From Actinomycetes bacterium (GTDB taxonomy: Bacteria > Actinomycetota > Thermoleophilia > Gaiellales > Gaiellaceae), in contig JAOPYY010000034.1 in assembly GCA_025964395.1 (NCBI GenBank), forward strand, positions 1-44,257: a stretch of DNA of 44,257 bases, read 5' to 3'. The position numbers and the translations under genes are program-made. The notes beneath the pieces were generated by a model. That model searched no databases and was not told where the DNA came from. It saw only the letters and a list, made by a program, of their open reading frames with translations. Below, one piece after another: positions 2 to 10,245 of this stretch. The number at the start of each line of letters is the position of its first letter. The first letter of the stretch is position 1.

Positions 2-574
2 ACGGCGGCACGAGGCGCCGCCTACACGGCGGCAAGAGGCACCGCCCGTCCGAGTGTGGCCATGGGCGCGGGCGGGCAGCCCACGCCACCCCCGCCGCAG
101 CTCGCGCCTGCCCCGGCTACACCTGCGCCGAGCACAGCTCCCCCGCCGGCACCGACTCCGAGGACGCCTGCGCCGCCGGCGGCCCCGGTTCCGGCGACGC
201 CTGCGCCGATCGCCACGCCGACCACCGTGCCGAGTGCGCCGGCTCAGCCCTCCGAGCCGCAAGGCGGCGACGAGAACGGCCACGGGCACGGGCACGGCCA
301 CGGCCACGGGCACGACAACGGGCACGGCCACGGGCACGACAACGGCGACGCGCAGAGCCAACCGGGAGCCGTGCCTGCTCCGAGCGTCCAGACACAGGGC
401 GGCGACGGGAACGGAAGCGGCGACGGGGGCGGGAGCTGGAACGGCAACGGCGACGGGGGCGGCAACGGGAACGGGAACGGCGACGGGAACGGCGACGGGA
501 ATGGGAACGGCAACGGCGACGGGAACGGCAATGGCGACGGGAACGGCAATGGCAACGGCGACGGCGGAGACTGA
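2..574 (+). CDS. Pro/Ala-rich then Gly/His/Asn/Asp low-complexity protein, 5' truncated by window edge (track ORF starts at 56 but the frame is open to position 2)
   Basis: Frame open to window start; PTPPPP...PAPAT linker, (GH)n and (GNGD)n tail, stop at 572-574. Confidence 0.5.
   Translation, partial: TAARGAAYTAARGTARPSVAMGAGGQPTPPPPQLAPAPATPAPSTAPPPAPTPRTPAPPAAPVPATPAPIATPTTVPSAPAQPSEPQGGDENGHGHGHGHGHGHDNGHGHGHDNGDAQSQPGAVPAPSVQTQGGDGNGSGDGGGSWNGNGDGGGNGNGNGDGNGDGNGNGNGDGNGNGDGNGNGNGDGGD
277..573 (+). repeat. Low-complexity GGCCAC/GGGCAC (Gly-His) and GGGAACGGCGAC (Gly-Asn-Gly-Asp) repeat tract
   Basis: Directly visible hexamer/dodecamer reiteration; encodes GHGHGHGHGHGHDNGHGHGHDNGD and GNGDGNGNGNGDGNGNGDGNGNGNGDGGD. 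Confidence 0.85.
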
Positions 575-2074: not shown

Positions 2075-2551
2075 CTAGTGGTGCGCCCGAACCGTGTGCT
2101 TGGTTCGACGACCGCTCTTCGCGTGCTTCGCGCGCGAGGCGTGCGCTTTCTTGGCCGTTGGTGCCTTCGGCGTCACTTTCTTGGCCGTCGGTGCCGTCGG
2201 GGTGGCGGCATTGCCCTTAGCCGGTGCGGCGCTCGGGCACGCTTGAGGTGCAGAGCTCCCGTCAGCGCCGAGGGGACCGTTCGGGCCAAGTGGACCATCA
2301 GGGCCGAGCGAGCTTGGGTTGACGTTCGGCCCGACGCAGCCGCCGCCCTTCAGCGGGCCTGACGAGCCCAGCGGCCCGTCGGGGCCGAGGACGCCAGACT
2401 TCTGAAGGATGCTGACGACGGTGACCGGCGGTGGCGTGGCATTCGCAAGGGTTGCGGCACTTGCGGCCGCCGGGGCACCAACCGAGATCGCGCCGGCGAC
2501 CGCCAGAACCGCACTGAGTTTTATCGGGGACATTGGTCTTATCGGGGACAT
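2075..2551 (-). CDS. Small secreted protein with GPLGPNGPLG core and basic C-terminal tail
   Basis: AGGAGG SD before ATG at 2551; signal peptide ending APAAASA; core GVLGPDGPLGSSGPLKGGGCVGPNVNPSSLGPDGPLGPNGPLGADG; K/R/H-rich tail. Start trimmed from track ORF 2075..2776. Confidence 0.75.
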   Translation of the reverse strand: MSPIRPMSPIKLSAVLAVAGAISVGAPAAASAATLANATPPPVTVVSILQKSGVLGPDGPLGSSGPLKGGGCVGPNVNPSSLGPDGPLGPNGPLGADGSSAPQACPSAAPAKGNAATPTAPTAKKVTPKAPTAKKAHASRAKHAKSGRRTKHTVRAHH

Positions 2552-2657: not shown

Positions 2658-3767
<1,110 letters not shown>

Positions 3768-3992: not shown

Positions 3993-5384
3993 CTACAGGG
4001 CCTTCGCCGCTGCGATCAGCTCGTCGATGGAGTCCTTCGCGTCGCCGAAGAGCATCACCGTCTTGGGGTTCTGGAAGAGCGGGTTGTCGATGCCGGCGAA
4101 GCCGGGGTTCATCGAGCGCTTGAGCACGACGACGGCGGCGGCCTGGTCGACGTTCAGGATCGGCATCCCGTAGATCGGGCTGCCGGGGTTGTTCCGCGCG
4201 TCGACGTTGACGACGTCGTTTGCGCCGATGACGAGCGCAACGTCGGTCTGCGGGAACTCCGGGTTGATCTCATCCATCTCCTTCAGCTGCGGGTAGGGCA
4301 CGTTGGCCTCGGCGAGCAGCACGTTCATGTGGCCGGGCATGCGGCCGGCTACCGGGTGGATCGCGTAGGAGACGTTGACGCCCTTTCCCTCGAGCAGGTC
4401 GGCGAGCTGGCGCACGTCCTGCTGCGCCTGTGCGACGGCCAGACCGTAGCCGGGCACGATGATGACGCGGTGCGCGTACGCGAGCATGACGGCGACGTCG
4501 TCGGCGGTCGCCGAGCGCACCGTTCCGCCGTTCGATGCCGCTGCTGCGGCGCCGCTCGCGGCGACCGTGCCGAACGCGCCGAAGAGGACATTCGCGATCG
4601 AGCGGTTCATCGCGCGCCCCATCTTCACGGTGAGCAGGGTGCCCGAGGCGCCGACGAGCATGCCGGCCACGATCAATACATTGTTCTCGAGCTCGAAGCC
4701 GGTGGCCGCCGCGGCGAGTCCCGTGAACGCGTTGAGCAGCGAGATCACAACCGGCATGTCTGCGCCGCCGATCGGCAGGACGAACAGGATCCCGAACAAG
4801 CCCGCGCCGAGGCAGAGGGCGACAAGCAGCCACTGGTGCTCGAAGCCGGCGACGATGACGACGCCGGCTGCGACGCAGGCGCCGAAGAGCAGCAGGTTGC
4901 CGACCTTTTGGCCGGGATACGTGATCGGCCGGCCCCGAACGAGCTCCTGCAACTTCGCGAACGCCACCATCGAGCCGGCGAACGAGATCGAGCCGATCAG
5001 TGCCGAGAGGACGAGCGAGATCGAGATGTCCCGCTGCAGGTGCCCGGCAGCCGGTGCGAGGATGTGGAACTCGGCGAGCGAGATCAGGGCCGCAGCCCCG
5101 CCGCCGACGCCGTTGAACAGCGCGACCATCTGCGGCATCGCCGTCATCTTCACGCGCCGTGCCGCCACCGCTCCGCAGGCGCCGCCGACGATCATCCCGA
5201 CGACGATCTCCCAGTAGCTCACGACGGTCGTGTTCGCGAACGTGACTGCGATCGCGACGAGCATCCCGACCGCGCCGATCTGGTTGCCGCGCCGTGCGGT
5301 CGCCGGATGGGAGAGGAACCGCAGCGCCAAGATGAAGCTCACGATCGTGACGATGTACGCCAGGTTGGTGGCGTCTCTACCCAC
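3993..5384 (-). CDS. pntB: NAD(P) transhydrogenase subunit beta
   Basis: Multi-TM N-terminus and conserved C-terminal domain IVPGYGLAVAQAQ...HPVAGRMPGHMNVLLAEANVPY...IGANDVVNVDARNNPGSPIYGMPIL...KRSMNPGFAGIDNPLF. Confidence 0.95.
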   Translation of the reverse strand: MGRDATNLAYIVTIVSFILALRFLSHPATARRGNQIGAVGMLVAIAVTFANTTVVSYWEIVVGMIVGGACGAVAARRVKMTAMPQMVALFNGVGGGAAALISLAEFHILAPAAGHLQRDISISLVLSALIGSISFAGSMVAFAKLQELVRGRPITYPGQKVGNLLLFGACVAAGVVIVAGFEHQWLLVALCLGAGLFGILFVLPIGGADMPVVISLLNAFTGLAAAATGFELENNVLIVAGMLVGASGTLLTVKMGRAMNRSIANVLFGAFGTVAASGAAAAASNGGTVRSATADDVAVMLAYAHRVIIVPGYGLAVAQAQQDVRQLADLLEGKGVNVSYAIHPVAGRMPGHMNVLLAEANVPYPQLKEMDEINPEFPQTDVALVIGANDVVNVDARNNPGSPIYGMPILNVDQAAAVVVLKRSMNPGFAGIDNPLFQNPKTVMLFGDAKDSIDELIAAAKAL

Positions 5385-8473: not shown

Positions 8474-8759
8474 AGCTCCGCGGCGAACGCGATCCCTCCG
8501 CGTGTGTGTGCACGCCGACGATCGACGGGTTAGCGCCGGCCTCCGTCTACTCCCGCCGCGGTAAGGCCCGTACCGAGACCTGCGGTATCGAAAAGAGTCG
8601 TCGCTCGGGCGACGTCAAGACCTCCGCCCGCGGTGACCATGTCGCAAGTGCGATCAACCAGACAACGTCAAGTTCGGCAGGGCGTGCTGAAAAACGGTGC
8701 TCCGATTTCGAGTTGCCCGGCGATGGCCCTGGTCGCCGAGGCGCAAGGAGGTACGACCG

Positions 8760-9137
8760 ATGTTCTCAAGCAAGCATAAGAGGGCGGTGCTGGCAGTGGC
8801 CGGAGCGCTCGCCCTCGGCGTCCCCGCAGCCTCGAGCGCTGCGATCGTCCTTCCCGGCTTCGGATTGGCGGGGGTCGGCGCGGCTCAGAGTGCGCCGGCG
8901 CTGACCCCCGTCACGAGCATCGTGGGCGCGAACGGGGGCGTCCTCGGCACGGCCGGCCCGCTCGGCGCGAACGGCCCGCTCCATGGCGCCGGCTGCGTGG
9001 GGTCGAACGTCAACCCGAACTCGCTCGGGATCGACGGTCCGCTCGGCCCAAATGGTCCGCTCGGTCCCGGTGGGATCGGAGCCAACCTCACTTGCGCGGC
9101 GAGCGGCATCGGGCTCGTGGGCCTGTTCGGCTTCTAA
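8760..9137 (+). CDS. Small secreted protein with GPLGPNGPLG core (paralog of 2075..2551)
   Basis: AAGGAGG SD then ATG at 8760; signal peptide; GVLGTAGPLGANGPLHGAGCVGSNVNPNSLGIDGPLGPNGPLGPGG. Confidence 0.8.
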   Translation: MFSSKHKRAVLAVAGALALGVPAASSAAIVLPGFGLAGVGAAQSAPALTPVTSIVGANGGVLGTAGPLGANGPLHGAGCVGSNVNPNSLGIDGPLGPNGPLGPGGIGANLTCAASGIGLVGLFGF

Positions 9138-9291
9138 CGGCTGAGATCGATCTGGCAGACGCGCGGCGGCATCGTCCGCCGCGCGGCTGCGTGTCCCGGA
9201 GTACCGCGCTACCTCCGGGAAGGCAGCGCAAAGAGCCACCCGGGGGCCGACGACCGGCGCGATGGTTGGCCGCCACCATCCAAAGGTGGCC

Positions 9292-10245
9292 ATGAGCGAT
9301 CCGTACGACGTCTACCACCAAGTGCCCGTTGCCGGCGGGACGCTCCGCGTAGCGCGCGCAGGCTTGCCGCCCGAGGAGGCTGACGGAGTCGTGCTCGCGG
9401 TGCACGGGATCACGTCCTCGCTGATGGCCTGGCGGACCGTGGCACGCGATCTGACCGGGCGCCTGGATATCTGCCTGCTCGCACCCGACCTGCGTGGGCG
9501 GGGCCAGAGTGCTCGCCTGCCGGGCCCGTACGGATTCGCCGCTCACACGGCCGACCTCCTCGCAGTACTCGACCACGCGCGCGTCGAGCGGGCGGTGCTG
9601 GTGGGGCACTCGATGGGGGCCTATGCCGTCGCCCGCCTTGCGGCGGAGCACCCGGAGCGTGCCGCAGCAGTGGTGCTCGTCGACGGTGGCATGCCGTATG
9701 CCGACGCGCCCGAGGGCGATCCCGACGCCGTCGTCGAGGACGCCGCCGCGCCTCTGACCGAGCGCTTGCACAAGACGTTCGCGTCCGTTGACGCGTACGC
9801 GGACCACTGGGCCGCGCACCCGGCATTCAAGTACGCGTGGGACGACGACGTGGAGGCGTACGCACGCTACGACGTGGAGGGGGAGCCTGGTTTGATGCGC
9901 TCTGTCGTCTCCGAGCCCGGCGTGGTGATCGACCTGCGCGAGTTCCTGTTCGACGAGGCGACTCGGACGGCGCTCGACCGGGTACGCGCGCCGATCCACG
10001 TCGTCCGCGCCGCACGCGGGCTGTTGGACGAGCCGGAGAAGCCGTTGATCGCGGCTGACTTCCTGACCGACTTCGCAGCCAAGCGGCTCGACGCATCCGT
10101 CGAATGCGTCCCGAGGGCGAACCACTACACGGTCGTGCTCGGCACGGGCGACGGCCCGCTCGTCGTCGCGGGCGCGATCGAGCGAGCCCTGCGCCAAACC
10201 GGATCGGAGGTGAACTTCAGTGCTGCATCTGAGCGATCCGTTTGA
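9292..10245 (+). CDS. Alpha/beta hydrolase
   Basis: LAVHGITSS...LVGHSMGAYAVARLAAEHPERAAAVVLVD; late ANHYTVVLG catalytic-His context. Confidence 0.88.
   Translation: MSDPYDVYHQVPVAGGTLRVARAGLPPEEADGVVLAVHGITSSLMAWRTVARDLTGRLDICLLAPDLRGRGQSARLPGPYGFAAHTADLLAVLDHARVERAVLVGHSMGAYAVARLAAEHPERAAAVVLVDGGMPYADAPEGDPDAVVEDAAAPLTERLHKTFASVDAYADHWAAHPAFKYAWDDDVEAYARYDVEGEPGLMRSVVSEPGVVIDLREFLFDEATRTALDRVRAPIHVVRAARGLLDEPEKPLIAADFLTDFAAKRLDASVECVPRANHYTVVLGTGDGPLVVAGAIERALRQTGSEVNFSAASERSV

What the first reader, a model, noticed from the sequence alone, without database searches (positions are those of the whole stretch)
8760..9137. Undescribed secreted protein family with GVLGxxGPLGxxGPLxGxGCVGxNVNPxSLGxDGPLGPNGPLGxxG core
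Seen: this protein and that at 2075-2551, about 6 kb apart and in opposite orientation, share the core almost residue for residue. Both have two Cys in the mature region separated by exactly 32 residues (C-VGPNVNP...PQA-C and C-VGSNVNP...NLT-C). The region between the Cys contains five Gly-X-Y triplets (GPD/GID GPL GPN GPL GAD/GPG) and an earlier triplet run precedes the first Cys. Both have signal peptides and good SD sequences. Inference: a disulfide-closed loop carrying short collagen-like triplets, used at the cell surface. I do not recognise this as a named family.
Basis: partly seen in the sequence, partly recalled or inferred. Interest (0 to 1): 0.75.

Follow-up and report, generated by a model that had tools for sequence, protein, structure and literature searches.

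The report
Secreted protein with pseudoknot-leader regulon
The gene makes a small secreted, mostly unstructured glycine/proline-rich protein of an unnamed family, and it belongs to a set of at least nine small secreted-protein genes in the same genome that share an undescribed candidate RNA pseudoknot right before the start codon.

Summary
Two opposite-strand genes (8760-9137 +, 2075-2551 -) encode secreted proteins with a shared 53-residue core (70% identical, conserved at protein level) and two Cys with 32 residues between. No Pfam or NCBIfam family covers it.

The disulfide/collagen reading is only partly right. A third paralogue and ten relatives in Solirubrobacter-type genomes keep the Gly-Pro-Leu-Gly runs, but seven of the 13 members have no Cys, runs reach only 6-9 triplets, the Collagen model is missed by a wide margin and AlphaFold gives no fold (pLDDT 50).

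The larger finding lies upstream. The gene has an exact 16-base box (five copies in the genome, each before a small secreted-protein gene) and, against its ribosome-binding site, a candidate H-type pseudoknot with compensatory changes. A model of it gave 18 hits below E=0.001 in the five genomes carrying this protein family and none in 34 others; 17 of the 18 start a small secreted-protein gene, including dissimilar proteins never used to find it. Rfam has no match. I read this as a regulon of small extracellular, probably coat-forming, proteins under a new candidate leader RNA. The RNA's trigger and the coat role are inferred.

The parts
8760..9137 (+). CDS of P0001, 125 aa secreted GPLG-core protein, Cys79 and Cys112
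8760..8843 (+). signal peptide MFSSKHKRAVLAVAGALALGVPAASSAA, same type as the PGSN-repeat proteins of the regulon
   Evidence: sequence
8937..9095 (+). core GVLGTAGPLGANGPL...C(79)VGSNVNPNSLGIDGPLGPNGPLGPGG...C(112)
8585..8600 (+). 16-base box GTATCGAAAAGAGTCG; five exact copies in the genome, each about 172-176 bases before the start of a small secreted-protein gene
8675..8752 (+). candidate leader RNA (models R1/R2) ending in the Shine-Dalgarno AAGGAGGT (8745-8752)
8679..8683 (+). stem S1, 5' strand AGGGC (pairs with 8726-8730 GCCCT; GGGGC/GCCCC in most others)
8718..8723 (+). stem S2, 5' strand CGGCGA (pairs with 8733-8738 TCGCCG)
2075..2551 (-). CDS of P0002, 158 aa paralogue with the same core, Cys72/Cys105 and a Lys/Arg/His-rich tail
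2237..2395 (-). core of P0002
2616..2638 (-). degenerate copy of the 16-base box (GTATGCGAAAGAGCCGCC) before P0002; no pseudoknot match here
2658..3767 (-). ORF read as aquaporin/MIP channel, just upstream of P0002; a 73% identical relative lies near a GPLG gene in G394:C24
   Evidence: function read by eye
9262..10245 (+). ORF read as alpha/beta hydrolase, just downstream of P0001; relatives beside GPLG genes in G394:C24 and G295:C15
   Evidence: function read by eye

Best explanation
P0001 is a small exported, largely disordered Gly/Pro-rich protein, probably closed by one disulfide. It is one of a genome-wide set of small secreted proteins made together through a shared 5' leader. The leader has a 16-base box near its far end and an H-type pseudoknot (S1 GGGGC/GCCCC, an internal hairpin, S2 CGGYGR/YCRCCG) ending 5-8 bases before the Shine-Dalgarno. 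Proposed mechanism: the mRNAs are made from related promoters; folding of the pseudoknot, set by an unknown ligand, protein or condition, controls ribosome access; the products leave by the Sec route, oxidise, and assemble outside into a coat or matrix together with collagen-like proteins. Shown by computation: the family, shared leader, compensatory changes, and restriction of strong motif hits to small secreted-protein genes in the genomes that carry the family. Inferred: that the element acts as RNA, that it controls translation, Sec export, the disulfide, and the coat role.
For: The 16-mer box (up to 2 mismatches allowed) occurs exactly five times in the genome, all perfect, reversed control 0, each before a small secreted-protein gene. 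On six leaders all 66 cells of 11 pairs are paired, with double changes at three pairs; shifted registers pair 35-54%. On 20 leaders 93% are paired, six pairs have double changes, 0/500 shuffles reach the covariation score, shifted registers pair 41-59%. Model R2 in 39 genomes: 18 hits at E<1e-3, all in the five genomes with the GPLG family; the best hit in 34 other genomes is E=0.006. 17 of the 18 are followed 0-11 bases later by a start codon of a small signal-peptide-bearing protein, and six of seven hits not used to build R2 fit. Cys counts are even throughout. GPLG genes lie near collagen-like genes in three genomes.
Against: S1 is mostly invariant, so its covariation is weak; S2's outermost pair is broken in 7 of 20 sequences. 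The P0001 leader alone folds no better than shuffles (z=0.19), though pseudoknots are not modelled there. A9 and A10 were fitted to S2, and several leaders in this genome are recent duplicates. R1/R2 E-values are rough. One strong hit (G394:C409) precedes only a 14-codon ORF. P0002 and several GPLG relatives lack the pseudoknot, so family and regulon overlap but do not coincide. No expression, export or assembly data exist.
Confidence: 0.55

Rival explanations
1. The shared upstream element is a DNA operator or promoter, or a leftover of recent gene duplication, not an RNA structure.
For: Three of the five box-bearing leaders in this genome are close duplicates and upstream flanks also align. 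S1 and S2 are inverted repeats that a dimeric regulator could bind. Thermodynamic folding is not better than chance. The 16-mer box itself looks like a DNA site.
Against: The element keeps one orientation and ends at the Shine-Dalgarno, 0-12 bases before the start codon, in 19 of 20 cases. Changes in S2 are compensatory across genomes of two taxonomic families. It precedes proteins that are not alike, with only an architecture in common.
Confidence: 0.25
2. P0001 and P0002 are miniature collagens: three chains form short triple helices at the cell surface, with the disulfide as a staple.
For: Runs of 4-7 Gly-X-Y triplets with Pro at X; weak Collagen HMM similarity; clustering with collagen-like genes.
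Against: Runs reach only 6 triplets in the window proteins and are broken by a linker of about 18 residues; score far below the Pfam cut-off; no recognisable trimerisation domain; other regulon members have no triplets at all.
Confidence: 0.15
3. The proteins are secreted peptides with an activity (bacteriocins, signals) rather than structural coat parts.
For: Small size; one disulfide; several dissimilar sequences under one control; one class (CGGAAI tail) is predicted as a disulfide-ended helical hairpin (residues 41-80 pLDDT about 77-87).
Against: No immunity, processing or transporter gene recognised beside P0001 or P0002 (read by eye); long repeats such as PGSNGGATIGAG and GYGQH are typical of structural proteins; nine dispersed motif sites in one genome.
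Confidence: 0.15

Closest known systems
Bacterial collagen-like proteins (Pfam PF01391; Scl1/SclA NF038330; Lcl NF046116)
   Same: Gly-X-Y triplets with Pro at X, secretion, clustering with a genuine collagen-like gene on contig C29
   Different: 4-7 triplets per run instead of dozens, no anchor motif or globular trimerisation head, scores far below the curated cut-offs
Chaplins and rodlins of Streptomyces (hydrophobic coat proteins; background in PMC10117811)
   Same: A set of small secreted proteins made together, some with a Cys pair, and a proposed coat role
   Different: No sequence match in the Pfam scan; Gly/Pro-rich core instead of the chaplin motif; a different group of actinobacteria
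ydaO-type c-di-AMP riboswitch before actinobacterial cell-wall genes (PMC10117811) and other leader RNAs in Rfam
   Same: A structured leader before several genes for exported proteins
   Different: No Rfam match in the leader at E<=10 for P0001; different architecture (short H-type pseudoknot at the ribosome-binding site); no ligand known

Membership tests
Collagen triple-helix repeat (PF01391) | score above the curated cut-off (27.2 bits) | tested here: not met
   P0001 10.0, P0002 13.8 bits
Collagen triple-helix repeat (PF01391) | long uninterrupted Gly-X-Y stretch | tested here: not met
   longest runs: 6 triplets in both window proteins, 6-9 in the family
Collagen triple-helix repeat (PF01391) | three-chain helix | not testable with these tools
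   only monomers could be predicted; monomer pLDDT 50
Scl1/SclA adhesin (NF038330) | score above the cut-off (400 bits) and LPXTG anchor | tested here: not met
   26.8 bits for P0002, none for P0001; no LPXTG in either sequence
Chaplin (PF03777) | match to the chaplin model | tested here: not met
   no match at E<=10 for P0001 or P0002 (HMMER filters drop most matches above about 0.1)
Known Rfam leader RNAs | match to a covariance model | tested here: not met
   no match for the P0001 leader at E<=10, only a chance antisense match at E=1.5 for the C11 leader, none in five further motif loci at E<=1 other than a tRNA and one weak unrelated sRNA match

The most novel reading that the evidence does not exclude
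A new class of cis-acting leader RNA, an H-type pseudoknot at the ribosome-binding site, switches on a whole set of dissimilar small extracellular proteins in scattered soil actinobacteria, senses a still unknown ligand or state, and so defines a surface-coat programme not described before.
Probability: 0.4. Interest if true: 0.78.

Novelty: new variant of a known kind. Interest (0 to 1): 0.6.

Why it matters
Bacteria of this class are little studied, and nothing was found in the searchable literature about coat or matrix proteins in them. A sequence-defined regulon gives a direct handle: the leader finds members that protein similarity cannot, since the proteins are short and low in complexity. 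If the pseudoknot is a sensor, its ligand would be new to the field; if it is only a translational element, it still marks a set of extracellular proteins worth purifying. One carrier, 'Candidatus Solirubrobacter pratensis' URHD0082, is a named strain.

Tried and rejected
Genome-wide HMM hits with E about 1e-2 to 1e-4 in other genomes of the class: the ones read are ordinary collagen-like repeats, antisense frames or chance. A C150 hit looks like a frame shadow. G015 and G336 hits are ordinary or collagen-like sequence. Plasmid and phage records: no match. Solved structures: none. Literature for the motif strings, Solirubrobacter plus collagen-like, riboswitch or structured RNA: nothing relevant. 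A terminator after P0001: a strong hairpin at 9155-9190 but no U tract and no clear excess over shuffles. Weak R1 hits in genomes without the family lie inside or beside long unrelated reading frames. A thermodynamic-folding view of the leader was dropped as uninformative. Contamination of the window contig by a Solirubrobacter relative: not supported, since its pntB is 72-76% identical to same-genus genomes and about 60% to the f10 genomes.

Full report
Observation. Both genes are present as described. The shared core is 53 residues without gaps, 37 identical; substitutions are concentrated at third codon positions (10/10/24) and dN/dS is about 0.3, so the protein sequence is under selection. 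Two Cys with exactly 32 residues between are present in both. The GPLGxxGPL DNA pattern occurs six times in the genome against one for the reversed control: four times in these genes, twice in a third gene on contig C29 (7349-7780 +). In all three genes the two GPLGxxGPL blocks are exactly 27 residues apart, but the third gene has no Cys.

Family. Pfam and NCBIfam give no family. Searches with the core found members in a few genomes of the same class: one of 103 genomes of the window's own family (this one; the second hit, in G015, is an ordinary collagen-like repeat), and four of 146 genomes of the group holding 'Candidatus Solirubrobacter pratensis' (the fifth listed, G336, is weak and looks collagen-like). 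None of 12 same-genus genomes has it, and a sample of 396 further genomes of the phylum gave none at E<=1e-4. G436 is taken to be S. pratensis because its contig C4 has the same length (669,056) as the named record. Thirteen full members were collected. Types: GPTGPxGPLG...NLGPxGPLGPGGxLG at the C-terminus; the same followed by a basic tail (like P0002); a type with Cys on both sides of a GP-rich stretch (gap 40); and N-terminally anchored proteins ending in GPLGPNGPLG repeats. Cys: six members have two (gaps 32, 32, 32, 33, 40, 40), seven have none. The loop length is therefore not a family hallmark, although an even Cys number is.

Structure and collagen question. AlphaFold on P0001 with 11 sequences gives pLDDT 50. 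Collagen scores are 10-14 bits against a cut-off of 27. I conclude disordered Gly/Pro-rich chains, with a collagen triple helix possible but unsupported. The link to collagen that does stand is positional: in three genomes a GPLG gene lies within about 10 kb or less of a collagen-like gene with a conserved C-terminal domain (C29 in this genome, G394:C41, G414:C303), and the C29 gene passes the Collagen cut-off (37.5 bits).

Context. Next to P0001 is an ORF I read as an alpha/beta hydrolase, and next to P0002 one I read as an aquaporin. Relatives of both lie beside a GPLG gene again in G394:C24, 53% and 73% identical. The neighbourhood is thus shared between two taxonomic families, which suggests either old linkage or transfer; I cannot tell which. 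The window contig belongs with the own family by its pntB gene, but the genome bin holds a second pntB that is closer to one genus mate (84% to G011 against 76%), so the bin may mix two relatives.

The leader. Comparing upstream regions showed two shared blocks. The first, GTATCGAAAAGAGTCG, occurs exactly five times in the genome with up to two mismatches allowed, all perfect, reversed control zero; all five lie about 172-176 bases before the start codon of a small secreted-protein gene: P0001, three proteins made of PGSNGGATIGAG-type repeats or related sequence, and one ending in GYGQH repeats. P0002 has a degenerate copy. The second block ends at the Shine-Dalgarno and can form an H-type pseudoknot. 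In six sequences all 66 cells pair and three pairs show double changes; shifted registers pair 35-54%.

Testing the leader. A model built from six sequences with S2 only found, in 399 genomes, five additional hits in carrier genomes: the GYG gene (already seen by eye), G000:C127, G295:C55, G295:C15 and G394:C222. All five precede a small secreted protein at the right distance, whereas the hits in genomes without the family fall in or beside long unrelated reading frames. A second model with 11 sequences was run on 39 genomes including 34 without the protein family: 18 hits below 1e-3, all in the five carriers; the best in the others is 0.006. Six of the seven hits not used for building precede a small secreted-protein gene, among them one in S. 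pratensis. The exception, G394:C409, precedes a 14-codon ORF. On 20 aligned leaders, 93% of cells pair, six pairs have double changes, and no shuffle of 500 reaches the covariation score; shifted registers pair 41-59%. Most of the covariation is in S2; S1 is nearly invariant. Rfam has no match.

What the regulon encodes. The proteins share a signal-peptide style and Ala/Gly richness but are otherwise of several unrelated kinds: GPLG cores, PGSN repeats, a class ending in CGGAAI predicted as a helical hairpin with Cys at both ends, and Cys-rich short proteins. None of those scanned reaches a Pfam cut-off. Cys numbers in the predicted products are 0, 2 or 4. This is what one expects of exported proteins that are oxidised outside.

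Verdict. The protein family is real and unnamed; the Cys-loop collagen idea is partly supported. The stronger result is a candidate leader-RNA regulon. The RNA nature rests on compensatory changes in S2, fixed orientation and position at the ribosome-binding site, and correct prediction of new genes; the function of the proteins (coat or matrix) is inference by analogy and by gene neighbourhood.

Noticed in passing
L011 and L012 (contig C29 of the same genome), 6238-34540: Six small secreted-protein genes (PGSN repeats, GPLG, two with a shared SVFNGATVVQVDNG tail, GYGQH repeats, one more) lie within 30 kb, interspersed with genes I read by eye as a soluble di-iron monooxygenase cluster, GroEL and alcohol dehydrogenases.
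   Followed up: partly
L107, L108, L114, L122, L123, L129, L130: A second secreted family of the regulon (MS(Q/R)RKPLA... signal, CGGAAI-type end, Cys pair 29-34 apart), predicted as a disulfide-ended helical hairpin.
   Followed up: partly
upstream of the motif in L107, L108, L122, L123, L114, L124, L129: A palindromic box GGTCCCGCGGGACAGC lies about 40-60 bases before the pseudoknot of many of these genes; related GGACAG boxes precede some GPLG genes without the pseudoknot.
   Followed up: no
window 3993-5384 and G000:C50:838-2223: Two different pntB genes in one genome bin (74% identical to each other); the C50 copy is closer to a genus mate, so the bin may hold two relatives.
   Followed up: partly
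window 56-574: Low-complexity ORF rich in Asn, Gly, Asp and His (GHGHGHG, GNGDGNG) near P0002 at the contig start; possibly another exported repeat protein or a frame artefact.
   Followed up: no
L068 8081-8431 and L075 6930-7298: GPLG-type proteins with 40 residues between two Cys and a conserved hydrophobic C-terminal stretch; both carry the pseudoknot leader and lie near a collagen-like gene.
   Followed up: partly
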